This document shows positions 10,450 through 62,275 of a stretch of DNA of 64,000 bases, piece by piece. The notes beneath the pieces were generated by a model. That model was not told where the DNA came from and searched no databases. It worked only from the letters and a program-made list of their open reading frames with translations. The position numbers and the translations under genes are program-made. Source of the stretch: a virus; the IMG/VR virus record IMGVR_UViG_3300010368_000009, positions 37,447 through 101,446 of that record; one strand, given 5' to 3'. Each line of letters starts with the position of its first letter. Positions within the stretch are counted from its first letter, which is position 1.

Positions 10450-10491
10450 AAACACCCGTTGCTTTTACTATTTAGTAAGCAACGGGTGTTT
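10450..10491 (-). terminator. Strong intrinsic terminator of the HNH gene
   Basis: AAACACCCGTTGCTT (10450-10464) pairs perfectly with AAGCAACGGGTGTTT (10477-10491). On the minus strand the stem is followed by TTTTTCTT. The loop contains CTAAATA, close to the late promoter box. Confidence 0.85.
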
Positions 10492-44226: not shown

Positions 44227-44256
44227 TTGACATAGTTTCGTTTTCTGGTATAAGTA
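44227..44256 (+). promoter_or_regulatory. Promoter of the tRNA-Pro/Gln cluster
   Basis: TTGACA (44227-44232) and TATAAG (44249-44254, within GTATAAGTA) are 16 bases apart. The predicted start is at about 44261. Confidence 0.72.
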
Positions 44257-44490: not shown

Positions 44491-44566
44491 CAGAATGTAG
44501 CTCAGTGGCGAGAGCACCGGTCTTGGGCACCGGGGGTCGCAGGTTCGAATCCTGCCATTCTGACCA
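44491..44566 (+). tRNA. Second tRNA with anticodon TGG (Pro)
   Basis: Acceptor CAGAATG pairs with CATTCTG, followed by A and encoded CCA. The anticodon arm is CCGGT-CTTGGGC-ACCGG, so the anticodon is again TGG. The body differs from the first copy in the acceptor, D arm and anticodon stem, so it is not a simple duplicate. Confidence 0.87.
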
Positions 44567-44617: not shown

Positions 44618-44692
44618 TGGAGAGTCGCCAAGCGGTAAGGCAACAGGTTTTGATCCTGTCATGCGCAGGTTCGAATCCTGCCTCTCCAGCCA
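44618..44692 (+). tRNA. tRNA-Gln(TTG)
   Basis: Acceptor TGGAGAG pairs with CTCTCCA, followed by G and encoded CCA. The anticodon arm is ACAGG-TTTTGAT-CCTGT with anticodon TTG. The T arm is GCAGG-TTCGAAT-CCTGC. Confidence 0.92.
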
Positions 44693-44697
44693 TTTTT

Positions 44698-44747
44698 ATA
44701 TTCGAACCACCTTTTGCTATAAGTAGTATTAAAGGTGGTTCGAATAT
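44698..44747 (+). promoter_or_regulatory. 17-bp hairpin with a promoter in its loop and the RBS in its stem
   Basis: The 17 bases at 44698-44714 are the exact reverse complement of 44731-44747. The 16-base loop holds CTATAAGTAGTATT. The right arm contains AAAGGTGG and the first two bases of the ATG at 44746. Read-through RNA from the tRNAs would hide the ribosome binding site, while RNA started in the loop would lack the left arm. Confidence 0.8.
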
Positions 44748-45450
44748 GGTTAGATTTAATTGGAGTGGTAGTGAAGAAGTAATACATGAAGCTGTATCGG
44801 CGTCATATTCTGTTACTGAAACACTAAGGCGATTGGGTTTGGATAATAAGGGTGGTAATTATAAAACGTGTAAGAAATATATAGAATTATTTAATATTGA
44901 TAAATCGCATTTCAAGACACAGGGGGAACTCATAAGTGGTAAACGCAATGTTAATCATACTACATTAGATGAATATCTATGTAGTACTAACCCTGTGAAT
45001 CAAGTCATCAGAAAGAAAATGGTAGCAGAAGGTATCAAACCGGACGTATGTGAAATATGCGGGCAGGGAAACACATGGAATGATCGACCACTAGTTCTTC
45101 AAATAGATCATATGGATGGAGATAACCAAAATAATAATCTGACCAATCTTCGTATAATTTGCCCAAATTGCCACACACAGACGAAAACGTTTGGATTTAA
45201 GAGCCGAGTGGTAAAACGACATTGTATTATTTGTACCAGTCCTATTATGACAGGTAATAATAAAACATGTTCACGCGAGTGTCATGCAGAACTAGCTAGA
45301 CGTATAACAACCCATGATAATCCAATATGGTTAAAATATGATCTATCCGAGATGATCAAAACAATGACTAATACCCAAATAGCACAGGAAATAGGTTTCA
45401 CTGAAACATCGGTGAGAAAACGATTAAAAAAGCTCAATCTTACTAGATGA
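44746..45450 (+). CDS. HNH homing-type endonuclease, 234 aa
   Basis: An HNH core lies at about residues 100-150: CEICGQGNTW, LQIDHMDGDNQNNNLTNLRI and ICPNCHTQTKTF. It has two CxxC pairs and the N-N-x-x-x-N-L-R pattern of free-standing phage HNH enzymes. A second Cys motif (HCIICTSPIMTGNNKTCSREC) follows, and the C-terminus ends in a helix-turn-helix-like segment (TNTQIAQEIGFTETSVRKRL). The N-terminal helix-turn-helix-like part (SYSVTETLRRLGL) may also bind DNA. Expression appears gated by the overlapping hairpin. It follows tRNA-Gln directly, a common place for mobile genes. Confidence 0.88.
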   Translation: MVRFNWSGSEEVIHEAVSASYSVTETLRRLGLDNKGGNYKTCKKYIELFNIDKSHFKTQGELISGKRNVNHTTLDEYLCSTNPVNQVIRKKMVAEGIKPDVCEICGQGNTWNDRPLVLQIDHMDGDNQNNNLTNLRIICPNCHTQTKTFGFKSRVVKRHCIICTSPIMTGNNKTCSRECHAELARRITTHDNPIWLKYDLSEMIKTMTNTQIAQEIGFTETSVRKRLKKLNLTR

Positions 45451-47437: not shown

Positions 47438-47455
47438 TTGTCCTATTTCCCATGC

Positions 47456-47489
47456 TATTGGCTTAATCTTATAAATAGTTAAGCCAATA
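47456..47489 (+). promoter_or_regulatory. 11-bp hairpin with TATAAATA in its loop
   Basis: TATTGGCTTAA (47456-47466) is the reverse complement of TTAAGCCAATA (47479-47489). The loop contains TATAAATA (47470-47477), the T4 late promoter consensus. It follows one gene by 18 bases and precedes the next start by 24. Confidence 0.78.
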
Positions 47490-47513
47490 ATCTTTAAATG
47501 GGAGACTAGTTCA

Positions 47514-48612: not shown

Positions 48613-49389
48613 TTAAGCGACTTTCTTGGTATTCCAGCGCTTGTGTTGTGCAGCGGAACGCGATGCTGACAGTGCTGGTGGAACCGATGGATAATCATCT
48701 GGTAGGTTCCACTTTTCCTTATATTCCGCAAAGGTCATCGAGTGGCGGGACTTCAGCCAGCGCGTCAACGTTTTGACGGATTGACCATCTTCCAGACAAA
48801 TCAGATGATCGGGCTGGATGGTTGCTTCAACCGAAGTAATGCCTTCAGGTGGGGTTTGACCATTCCAGAGTGAGCTTGGACTGTCGCTTTCCGATGGCGC
48901 GGCATCACCCGTGTCTTCAGAAGGCGTGGTCACTGCGGTGCTACCGGCTTTGCGACCAAGGCCATAGGTCTTGGCGAGCTTCGACCGGCTCTTCGAATAC
49001 TTGCTGCATACCATAGGGTAATCGCTTGGAAGATTGAACTTCGCGATATATTCAGCAGGAGTAAGCCCATTGGTGGACAGATGACGTTTCAACATCTTGT
49101 ACTTATTGCCATCGACCAGAGAGATAATACCATCCTTGAAGACAGTAGCCTCAACGATTGCTGCCGGGGTGCTCATGTCTTGTGTGGCGAAGACAGAATG
49201 CACGACCGCATCAACCACGGTCAGGCGTGGTGATTCGAACAGAATATTCGTGGCCGATGTGATGCGAGAAAGCACATCGTCAAGGCTCTCGATTGGAACT
49301 TCATTGCGACCAAGATAGGTGGCGACGATATTACCCACGATGCCAGCACGGACAGCAGTGGATACAGAGGTTTCGGGAGTAGTGTTCAT
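48613..49389 (-). CDS. Tandem MucR/Ros-family regulator, 258 aa
   Basis: Two MucR-like units are fused. The first includes an N-terminal AGIVGNIVATYLGRNEVP segment, LVDGNKYKMLKRHLSTNGLT, PAEYIAKFNLPSDYP and YGLGRKAG. The second has LICLEDGQSVKTLTRWLKSR, TFAEYKEKWNLPDDYPSVPP and HKRWNTKK. Normal MucR/Ros proteins have one such unit in about 140 residues. The second unit keeps the CLEDG variant of the zinc site; the first has SLVDG and lacks the cysteine. Start 49389 follows AAGGA. A perfect promoter and a 12-bp tandem repeat lie upstream. MucR proteins are alphaproteobacterial global regulators, so this gene suggests the host and a means of rewiring it. Confidence 0.88.
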   Translation of the reverse strand: MNTTPETSVSTAVRAGIVGNIVATYLGRNEVPIESLDDVLSRITSATNILFESPRLTVVDAVVHSVFATQDMSTPAAIVEATVFKDGIISLVDGNKYKMLKRHLSTNGLTPAEYIAKFNLPSDYPMVCSKYSKSRSKLAKTYGLGRKAGSTAVTTPSEDTGDAAPSESDSPSSLWNGQTPPEGITSVEATIQPDHLICLEDGQSVKTLTRWLKSRHSMTFAEYKEKWNLPDDYPSVPPALSASRSAAQHKRWNTKKVA

Positions 49390-49416
49390 GTCGGTGTTTC
49401 CTTGTAGCCGATCTAT

Positions 49417-49440
49417 GTTCAAACACGCGTTCAAACACGC
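49417..49440. repeat. Tandem 12-bp repeat in the MucR-like gene leader
   Basis: GTTCAAACACGC occurs twice head to tail (49417-49428 and 49429-49440), between the predicted start of transcription and the gene. It could be an operator for autoregulation. Confidence 0.7.
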
Positions 49441-54497: not shown

Positions 54498-55310
54498 ATG
54501 GTAAATAAAAATAAAAACAAATCGGCCTATTCATTGGTTGAAGAAGTTGCTGCAATTATCAAATTCCAATTTATGGAAGATGAAGAATCTAAAAGCATTC
54601 TATTTGCTCAATATTCTAATTTGGTTCATATGCATGCTCATAGGATTTATGGCAAATCAATGAAATCATCTATCACCTTTAATGATCTTGTATCTGAAGG
54701 GTTCATCGGTCTATTGGTCGCCATGAAAAAACATAATGTATTTCGTTGTGACAAAATGTACCCAACCGCTAATTTCTATATTATCGAAAATATCAACTGT
54801 TACGTGATGGACGCCATGTCTATGACCCGTAATCTTTCTACAAATTCAAATGGTAGAAAGATGTTCCATAGATATGGAAAAACCCTAAATCAGTTAGGAT
54901 TTGAACCGCCCCTAAATATTCCACAAATTGAGGCGATGTCAGTTGAATTGTCTGTACCGGTGCGTGATATAGAGTTTATGGAATCCGTTTATGCAAACAA
55001 ATCAGTGTCTACCACTGATGATAGTATTATGAATCTCAGATCAGATCATGATCATGAAACCGTTGAGGATGATCTTGATAGTGTTCGCCTTATGTCACTA
55101 ATCAAAAACAAATACTTGCATAGATTGTCCGAAAAAGAACAAGACATTGCTAAACGCCGAATTCTCACAGATGATGCTGAGAACGCAAAGAAGATTGCTG
55201 ATGAATATGGAGTATCAACTTCATCCATCTACCAATTGGAAAAAAGAGTGAGCCAAAAACTTATATCAATGGCTCAAGAAGAAATGAAAATTAATATCAA
55301 GGCGGCATAG
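54498..55310 (+). CDS. Sigma-70 family factor, RpoH-like, 270 aa
   Basis: Region 2 is visible near residues 35-100 (FAQYSNLVHMHAHRIYGK, FNDLVSEGFIGLLVAMKKH). Region 4 is near residues 205-262 (LSEKEQDIAKRRIL, then KKIADEYGVSTSSIYQLEKR). The overall layout and length are like RpoH-type alternative sigma factors rather than T4 gp55, which lacks a proper region 4. It is a plus-strand gene inserted into the minus-strand baseplate cluster, with GAGG upstream. With the gp55-like gene at 61.7 kb, the window encodes two sigma factors. Confidence 0.87.
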   Translation: MVNKNKNKSAYSLVEEVAAIIKFQFMEDEESKSILFAQYSNLVHMHAHRIYGKSMKSSITFNDLVSEGFIGLLVAMKKHNVFRCDKMYPTANFYIIENINCYVMDAMSMTRNLSTNSNGRKMFHRYGKTLNQLGFEPPLNIPQIEAMSVELSVPVRDIEFMESVYANKSVSTTDDSIMNLRSDHDHETVEDDLDSVRLMSLIKNKYLHRLSEKEQDIAKRRILTDDAENAKKIADEYGVSTSSIYQLEKRVSQKLISMAQEEMKINIKAA

Positions 55311-61657: not shown

Positions 61658-62275
61658 ATGAACGATACAAAGGACACGCCTACAGAAGTCATTTCGGAAG
61701 CTGCCGAAGACTTGAATACCAGCGAAGAAATCATCGCTGAACCAGTGATTACAGAAGAACCACCTAAGCCGAAACGCAAACGGCAGAAGGCGACTCACTA
61801 TATTAAAAATAATGAGATGCTTGACGAGGTTCGTAAAAGCAAAGCGCGATTGATTGAAAATCCTGATATGGGTGGACAAGCCATCACGCCTAAATTGGCT
61901 GACATGTTTGTTAGGTTGGTTCATCACTATGCAACTAGACAGAACTGGTCTGGTTATTCATATCTTGATGAACTCAAGGGTGAAGCCTTGGTCAACTTGG
62001 TCAACAAGTGGCATAAATTTGATTGCGACCGGTTCGATAAACCATTCGCTTATTATTCTATACTGGTTGAACGATCCTTTAAGGGTCAAATCCAAAAGGA
62101 AAAGAAACCGCAGCGTGTTAGAGATTCTATCATAACATCACGCGGTGAGATGCCTTCGTTTGGTGCACAAGAAGAATATGAAAAAGAATGGAAGGAAAAT
62201 GTGGATGCAAAAGATGCATACGATTCCAACCAGAATGATCGCTTCAATGAACCGAGGGTAACCAATGACGATTGA
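61658..62275 (+). CDS. 55: Late sigma factor, gp55-like, 205 aa
   Basis: After an acidic, probably disordered start, the protein reads KRQKATHYIKNNEMLDEV, ITPKLADMFVRLVHHYATRQ, NWSGYSYLDELKGEALVNLV and FDKPFAYYSILVERSFKGQI. T4 gp55 has the same order: YVNNKELL, a helix ending in N-F-S-G-Y, KQEMI and N-P-H-A-Y. gp55 recognises TATAAATA late promoters with host RNA polymerase. ATG 61658 follows GAGG. The next genes lead to gene 47, as in T4. Confidence 0.88.
   Translation: MNDTKDTPTEVISEAAEDLNTSEEIIAEPVITEEPPKPKRKRQKATHYIKNNEMLDEVRKSKARLIENPDMGGQAITPKLADMFVRLVHHYATRQNWSGYSYLDELKGEALVNLVNKWHKFDCDRFDKPFAYYSILVERSFKGQIQKEKKPQRVRDSIITSRGEMPSFGAQEEYEKEWKENVDAKDAYDSNQNDRFNEPRVTNDD

What the first reader, a model, noticed from the sequence alone, without database searches (positions are those of the whole stretch)
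44698..44770. HNH nuclease gated by a hairpin with a promoter in its loop
A perfect 17-bp inverted repeat surrounds CTATAAGTAGTATT, and its right arm contains the ribosome binding site and touches the ATG. RNA read through from the tRNAs would fold and block translation, while RNA started in the loop begins at about 44730 and cannot. T4 homing endonuclease genes such as I-TevI use this logic with a late promoter. Here it sits in a tRNA-HNH array.
Basis: partly seen in the sequence, partly recalled or inferred. Interest (0 to 1): 0.75.

Follow-up and report, generated by a model that had tools for sequence, protein, structure and literature searches.

The report
Hairpin-gated endonuclease gene behind phage tRNAs
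A selfish DNA-cutting gene parked behind a phage's tRNA genes carries a perfect hairpin that should block its translation from passing RNA, with its own promoter in the hairpin's loop; dozens of other phage fragments use the same design, which is known from phage T4, but here the promoter in the loop is not of T4's late type.

Summary
A perfect 17-bp inverted repeat (44698-44714 / 44731-44747) encloses TGCTATAAGTAGTATT, and its right arm holds the Shine-Dalgarno sequence and touches the ATG (44746) of an intact HNH endonuclease gene 53 nt after a tRNA-Gln. RNA with both arms folds at -27.3 kcal/mol; RNA starting at the right arm is open (-1.2). Comparative evidence supports translational gating. 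In viral contigs, 30 of 84 tRNA-adjacent HNH genes have a start-region hairpin, against 15/161 other ORFs after tRNAs and 35/1375 elsewhere. Many loops hold TATAAATA, and the two arms covary (0 of 5000 swaps reach the own-pair score). The logic is known from T4 I-TevI, segB and Aeh1 mobE. The 'late promoter' part is not supported here: in this phage and a 335-kb relative, late-type genes have NATAAATA, whereas TATAAGTA is a separate class found before tRNAs, often with TTGACA (P=2e-5). The relative has another HNH gene with TATAAGTA in its hairpin loop, and its copy of the window's tRNA locus lacks the HNH gene. Best reading: a mobile-endonuclease leader that blocks translation of tRNA read-through RNA and permits it from a weak sigma70-like loop promoter. 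No transcript data exist.

The parts
44227..44256 (+). Promoter of the tRNA-Pro/Pro/Gln cluster: TTGACA-N16-TATAAGTA, the presumed source of read-through RNA
   Evidence: equivalent TTGACA-N17-CTATAAGTA in the relative L309
44408..44484 (+). tRNA-Pro (tgg)
44491..44566 (+). tRNA-Pro (tgg)
44618..44692 (+). tRNA-Gln (ttg), ends 5 nt before the hairpin
44698..44714 (+). Left (anti-RBS) arm ATATTCGAACCACCTTT
44715..44730 (+). Loop with extended -10 promoter-like TGC-TATAAGTA (44715-44725); predicted transcript start about 44729-44731
   Evidence: start position inferred from -10 geometry
44731..44747 (+). Right arm with SD AAAGGTGG (44731-44738), ends on the AT of the ATG
44746..45450 (+). Free-standing HNH endonuclease (234 aa; HNH, weak treble-clef and C-terminal HTH matches), phrog_10822
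47449..47503 (+). Second promoter-in-loop hairpin of this phage: late-type TATAAATA (47470) in the loop, outer stem takes the GGGAG SD of ORF 47514; conserved in the relative with different arm letters
61658..62275 (+). gp55-like late sigma factor (phrog_234), which would read the NATAAATA class
54498..55310 (+). Second phage sigma factor (phrog_351)

Best explanation
44698-44747 is the expression leader of a free-standing HNH homing-type endonuclease gene inserted behind a tRNA cluster. RNA reading through from the strong tRNA promoter (44227-44256) carries both arms, folds, and hides SD and AUG, so the nuclease is not translated. RNA started at the promoter in the loop (about 44730) lacks the left arm, has an open SD and is translated. 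Because the loop promoter is of the same sigma70-like class as the tRNA promoters but lacks a good -35, the hairpin most likely sets a low, insertion-site-independent dose rather than an early-to-late switch. Shown: sequence, fold, recurrence, arm covariation in relatives, promoter classes, absence of the HNH gene from the locus of a relative. Inferred: transcript starts, blocking of translation, homing activity, dose role.
For: Hairpin and open short form. Start-region hairpins in 30/84 HNH genes within 120 nt after a tRNA vs 15/161 other ORFs after tRNAs and 35/1375 elsewhere (HNH vs other tRNA-adjacent ORFs, Fisher P = 1e-6). TATAAATA or a close variant lies in the loop of 29 of 60 hairpins, typically 29-31 nt before the ATG. 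Covariation by arm swapping among 42 leaders: own stems 10.8, swapped 7.6 +/- 0.3, 0/5000 as high. Relative phage: HNH gene L313 (34% identity) with 13-bp arms around TATAAGTA right after a tRNA-Leu; the window's tRNA locus without the HNH gene in L309. Promoter class: TATAAGTA has a -35 of 5/6 or better in 10/17 sites vs 4/57 for NATAAATA (P = 2e-5), and precedes tRNAs in 13/17 vs 6/57 (P = 4e-7).
Against: No RNA ends, reporter or nuclease data. The window's and L313's loop sites lack a good -35 (best 4/6 and 2/6), so a gp55-type factor reading TATAAGTA is not excluded. Mismatches inside stems do not favour G-U over A-C (10 vs 6, P = 0.45), so that test does not separate RNA from DNA palindromes. 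No close homolog of this exact HNH was found, so covariation rests on relatives of about 30-40% identity.
Confidence: 0.66

Rival explanations
1. The T4 logic: TATAAGTA is a one-letter variant of the late promoter TATAAATA read by the phage's gp55-like sigma, so the nuclease is silent early and made late.
For: The phage encodes a gp55-like sigma; homologous leaders carry TATAAATA in the loop; the phage and its relative use late-type motifs in hairpin loops before other genes (window 47470; G020 327113, 187572, 286317); the loop site lacks a good -35.
Against: TATAAGTA behaves as a separate class tied to tRNAs and TTGACA, while late-type genes have NATAAATA; the loop site has an extended -10 TGC as do other -35-poor TATAAGTA sites of the phage.
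Confidence: 0.27
2. The palindrome is a DNA operator over the loop promoter, bound by the HNH protein or another dimer, as I-TevI represses its own late promoter.
For: Perfect symmetry around the promoter; autorepression is documented for I-TevI (PMC2988022); the HNH protein has a C-terminal HTH-like region; the G-U versus A-C test is inconclusive.
Against: Arm letters vary among relatives while complementarity is kept, unlike a conserved operator; the right arm is anchored on the start codon.
Confidence: 0.1
3. The hairpin is an intrinsic terminator or a 3'-processing signal of the tRNA transcript and the overlap with the RBS is incidental.
For: It begins 5 nt after tRNA-Gln.
Against: No T run follows the stem; the relatives' arms run to or over the ATG and enclose a promoter motif; other ORFs after tRNAs have such hairpins less often.
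Confidence: 0.06

Closest known systems
T4 td intron I-TevI leader (also I-TevII, I-TevIII)
   Same: Stable RNA structure hides the RBS on upstream RNA; an internal promoter makes RNA too short to fold (PMC2988022, PMC3014915)
   Different: Intron-encoded, mostly GIY-YIG; internal promoters are T4 middle or late; here a free-standing HNH behind tRNAs and a TATAAGTA, -35-poor promoter
T4 segB (free-standing, in the T4 tRNA region)
   Same: Endonuclease gene among tRNAs with predicted hairpin and predicted late promoter (PMC2988022)
   Different: GIY-YIG family; promoter predicted late
Aeromonas phage Aeh1 mobE
   Same: Free-standing HNH endonuclease with an RBS-hiding hairpin (PMC2988022, PMC3014915)
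   Different: Lies in ribonucleotide reductase genes, not among tRNAs
tRNA-Leu-adjacent HNH genes of uncultured phages (L043, L150-L217 group)
   Same: Related HNH, mostly 42-58 nt after a tRNA, covarying hairpin with promoter motif in the loop
   Different: Loop motif TATAAATA or near variants; no clear SD in the right arm; distant protein relatives of the window gene
HNH gene L313 of the 335-kb relative (G020)
   Same: TATAAGTA in the loop of a hairpin with 13-bp arms over the start region, right after a tRNA-Leu
   Different: Right arm lies in the first codons; 34% identity; the tRNA-Leu carries a group I intron

Membership tests
Promoter-in-loop, RBS-hiding leaders of phage homing endonucleases (I-TevI / segB / mobE kind) | Stem that includes SD and/or start codon on upstream-initiated RNA | tested here: met
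Promoter-in-loop, RBS-hiding leaders of phage homing endonucleases (I-TevI / segB / mobE kind) | Promoter placed so that its RNA lacks the upstream arm | tested here: inconclusive
   TGC-TATAAGTA motif in the loop, enriched before tRNAs of this phage; no transcript start mapped
Promoter-in-loop, RBS-hiding leaders of phage homing endonucleases (I-TevI / segB / mobE kind) | The promoter is a T4-type late promoter (TATAAATA) | tested here: not met
   Loop has TATAAGTA; late-type sites of the phage group are NATAAATA
Promoter-in-loop, RBS-hiding leaders of phage homing endonucleases (I-TevI / segB / mobE kind) | Gene lies on a longer upstream transcription unit | tested here: inconclusive
   Same-strand tRNA cluster with TTGACA-N16-TATAAGTA promoter upstream; read-through not measured
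Promoter-in-loop, RBS-hiding leaders of phage homing endonucleases (I-TevI / segB / mobE kind) | Demonstrated repression of translation by the hairpin | not testable with these tools
   Needs reporter or in vitro translation
Free-standing HNH homing endonucleases (phrog_10822) | Sequence family match with intact HNH residues | tested here: met
   phrog_10822 E = 7e-38; conserved H122, N134 and H143 columns
Free-standing HNH homing endonucleases (phrog_10822) | Presence/absence at one site among related genomes | tested here: met
   Syntenic tRNA-Pro/Pro/Gln locus of L309 lacks it and has a second tRNA-Gln there; one relative only
Free-standing HNH homing endonucleases (phrog_10822) | Site-specific cleavage and biased inheritance | not testable with these tools
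   Needs enzyme and co-infection assays

The most novel reading that the evidence does not exclude
The hairpin with a promoter in its loop is a portable insulator shared by several unrelated mobile-endonuclease classes that settle behind phage tRNAs. It accepts whichever promoter class the host phage offers (gp55-late TATAAATA or sigma70-like TATAAGTA) and keeps nuclease dose low and independent of the insertion site, rather than serving only as an early/late clock.
Probability: 0.3. Interest if true: 0.68.

Novelty: new variant of a known kind. Interest (0 to 1): 0.5.

Why it matters
RBS-hiding hairpins with an internal late promoter were described for a handful of T4-group endonucleases. Here the design recurs in about 40 distinct uncultured-phage leaders behind tRNAs, with covarying arms. 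In one phage group it appears before other late-type genes too, and in two related phages the loop carries a different promoter class. If confirmed, it separates the hairpin's blocking job from the late-timing job and gives a simple sequence rule for finding regulated mobile endonucleases in tRNA clusters.

Tried and rejected
Close relatives of this exact HNH or of the hairpin sequence in viral contigs: none. RNAalifold on the MAFFT alignment of 42 leaders gave no structure because the arms shift register between subfamilies; replaced by a register-free arm-swap test. G-U versus A-C mismatch test to separate RNA from DNA palindromes: inconclusive. Bacterial genome contigs gave mostly Streptomyces HNH genes that were not examined further. 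Rfam has no family for the hairpin; a weak microRNA hit below gathering score is chance. A terminator was rejected for lack of a T run. Classifying the loop as T4-late was judged less likely after comparing promoter classes in two related phages.

Full report
Observation. The inverted repeat is exact as described: 44698-44714 and 44731-44747, 17 of 17, 16-nt loop TGCTATAAGTAGTATT. It is the longest perfect repeat of its kind in the 101,446-bp viral contig that holds the window. RNA with both arms folds at -31.7 kcal/mol for 44690-44770, z -7.1, and -27.3 for 44698-44780. RNA beginning at 44731 has -1.2 kcal/mol and an open SD and AUG. The SD AAAGGTGG is the start of the right arm and ATG 44746 overlaps its end. 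The gene is a 234-aa HNH protein (phrog_10822, E 7e-38) with conserved catalytic columns, weak treble-clef and HTH-like matches, and lies 53 nt after tRNA-Gln in a tRNA-Pro/Pro/Gln cluster.

What it belongs to. Relatives in cultured phages often sit inside tRNA clusters. A profile search of viral contigs gave 80 loci. Inspection of the leaders showed the same design in several: for example L043 (17-bp arms, loop TATAAATAATAT), L068 (15-bp arms with AGGAG in the right arm, loop ATTATAAATACTGATA), L066, L070 and L078. A second search with that subfamily gave about 40 distinct leaders where a tRNA (tRNA-Leu wherever it was called) is followed, usually within 42-58 nt, by the hairpin, TATAAATA or a near variant in the loop, and the ATG at the end of the right arm. 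Among 157 distinct leaders, 60 have a start-region stem of score 9 or more and 29 of these hold the motif in the loop.

Controls. In the same loci, HNH genes within 120 nt after a tRNA have such stems in 30/84 cases, other ORFs after tRNAs in 15/161, ORFs elsewhere in 35/1375; with TATAAATA or TATAAGTA wholly inside the loop the counts are 12, 4 and 0. By their sequence several of the 'other ORF' hits look like further endonucleases (a GIY-YIG-like start in L065, an HNH-like one in L174, one HNH missed by my filter in L029); this was judged by eye only. Exchanging right arms among 42 leaders lowers the mean stem score from 10.8 to 7.6 (sd 0.3; best of 5000 permutations 8.9), so the arms change together. 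The gp55-like late sigma family is detectable in 6 of 19 of these (fragmentary) contigs.

The promoter in the window's loop is of another class. In the own contig TATAAGTA stands 14-30 nt before seven scattered tRNAs, before an adenylyltransferase/Nudix gene and before the tRNA-Pro cluster, sometimes with a perfect TTGACA at 16-17 bp; several sites without a -35 have an extended -10 TGN, as the loop site does. Late-type NATAAATA stands before the 4522-aa tail-fibre-like gene, the baseplate operon and others. A 335-kb relative found by its gp6-like baseplate protein (75% identity) repeats the split. Pooled, -35 elements of 5/6 or better accompany 10/17 TATAAGTA sites but 4/57 NATAAATA sites (P = 2e-5), and tRNAs follow 13/17 versus 6/57 (P = 4e-7; the window's loop site is not in this count). 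The loop site is therefore more likely a weak sigma70-like extended -10 promoter than a late promoter, though a phage sigma reading TATAAGTA is not excluded.

Independent recurrence in the relative. Its copy of the window's tRNA locus is syntenic, has the same promoter class, and lacks the HNH gene, with a second tRNA-Gln in that position. Elsewhere it has an HNH gene of the same family (L313, phrog_10822 4e-45) directly behind a tRNA-Leu that carries a group I intron (Rfam RF00028, 50.8 bits against a threshold of 50; the tRNA itself was recognised by eye from its halves). That gene's leader has TATAAGTA inside a hairpin with 13-bp arms whose right arm covers the first codons.

The same device on other genes. 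In the window, 47449-47503 places TATAAATA in a hairpin whose outer stem takes the GGGAG of ORF 47514. The homolog in the relative keeps the hairpin with different arm letters (TTGGCGTTAG/CTAACGCCAA around CATAAATA). Other examples in the relative are at 187572, 286317 and 301854.

Mechanism. Read-through RNA from the tRNA promoter folds and is not translated; loop-started RNA is short and open. Shown: sequence, folding, recurrence, covariation, promoter classes, presence/absence at the locus. Inferred: starts, translation block, homing. The role is probably dose control and insulation from the tRNA promoter, since both promoters are of one class; the T4-type timing switch is the main rival.

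Comparison with what is known. I-TevI, I-TevII, I-TevIII, segB and Aeh1 mobE have this logic (PMC2988022; PMC3014915), and T4 e, soc and 49 use inhibitory start-region structures. The window's leader works like these; the defining late promoter was tested and not met, so it is filed as a variant. Literature searches were limited to open-licence papers. Start codons and gene lists for metagenomic loci are heuristic, and G-U versus A-C counts did not distinguish RNA from DNA symmetry.

Noticed in passing
window 47449-47503: Late-type TATAAATA in the loop of a nested hairpin that takes the SD of ORF 47514; conserved with changed arms in the relative (G020:327113).
   Followed up: partly
window 10450-10491 (minus strand): 15-bp perfect hairpin with ACTAAATA in the loop directly before gene 10444-; a similar-looking protein in the relative (G020:286288-) has a hairpin of about 18 bp around AATAAATA. 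Could be terminator and promoter in one.
   Followed up: partly
L313 1080-1385: Phage tRNA-Leu interrupted by a group I intron (RF00028), followed at once by a hairpin-gated HNH gene.
   Followed up: partly
L065 near 5032, L174 near 490, L100, L101, L124: Other ORFs after tRNAs, some looking like GIY-YIG or other HNH endonucleases, also have start-region hairpins, four of them with TATAAATA in the loop.
   Followed up: no
L008 1456-1482: Variovorax phage V45v66: SD and ATG of a tRNA-Asn-adjacent HNH gene lie in the left arm of a short hairpin.
   Followed up: no
window 48613-49434 (minus): ROS/MucR-type transcriptional regulator (PF05443, 1e-51) in the phage, hinting at an alphaproteobacterial host.
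   Followed up: no
window 54498-55310 and 61658-62275: Two phage sigma factors, one gp55-like and one phrog_351; the second could read TATAAGTA.
   Followed up: no
contig G000:C1:14215-82138: 19 tRNAs scattered singly or in small groups, many with their own TATAAGTA promoter about 15 nt upstream; one is called tRNA-Pyl (anticodon CTA), perhaps a suppressor.
   Followed up: no
window 44659-44747: GGTTCGAAT is shared by the T arm of tRNA-Gln and the hairpin's right arm; possible origin of the arm, or chance.
   Followed up: no
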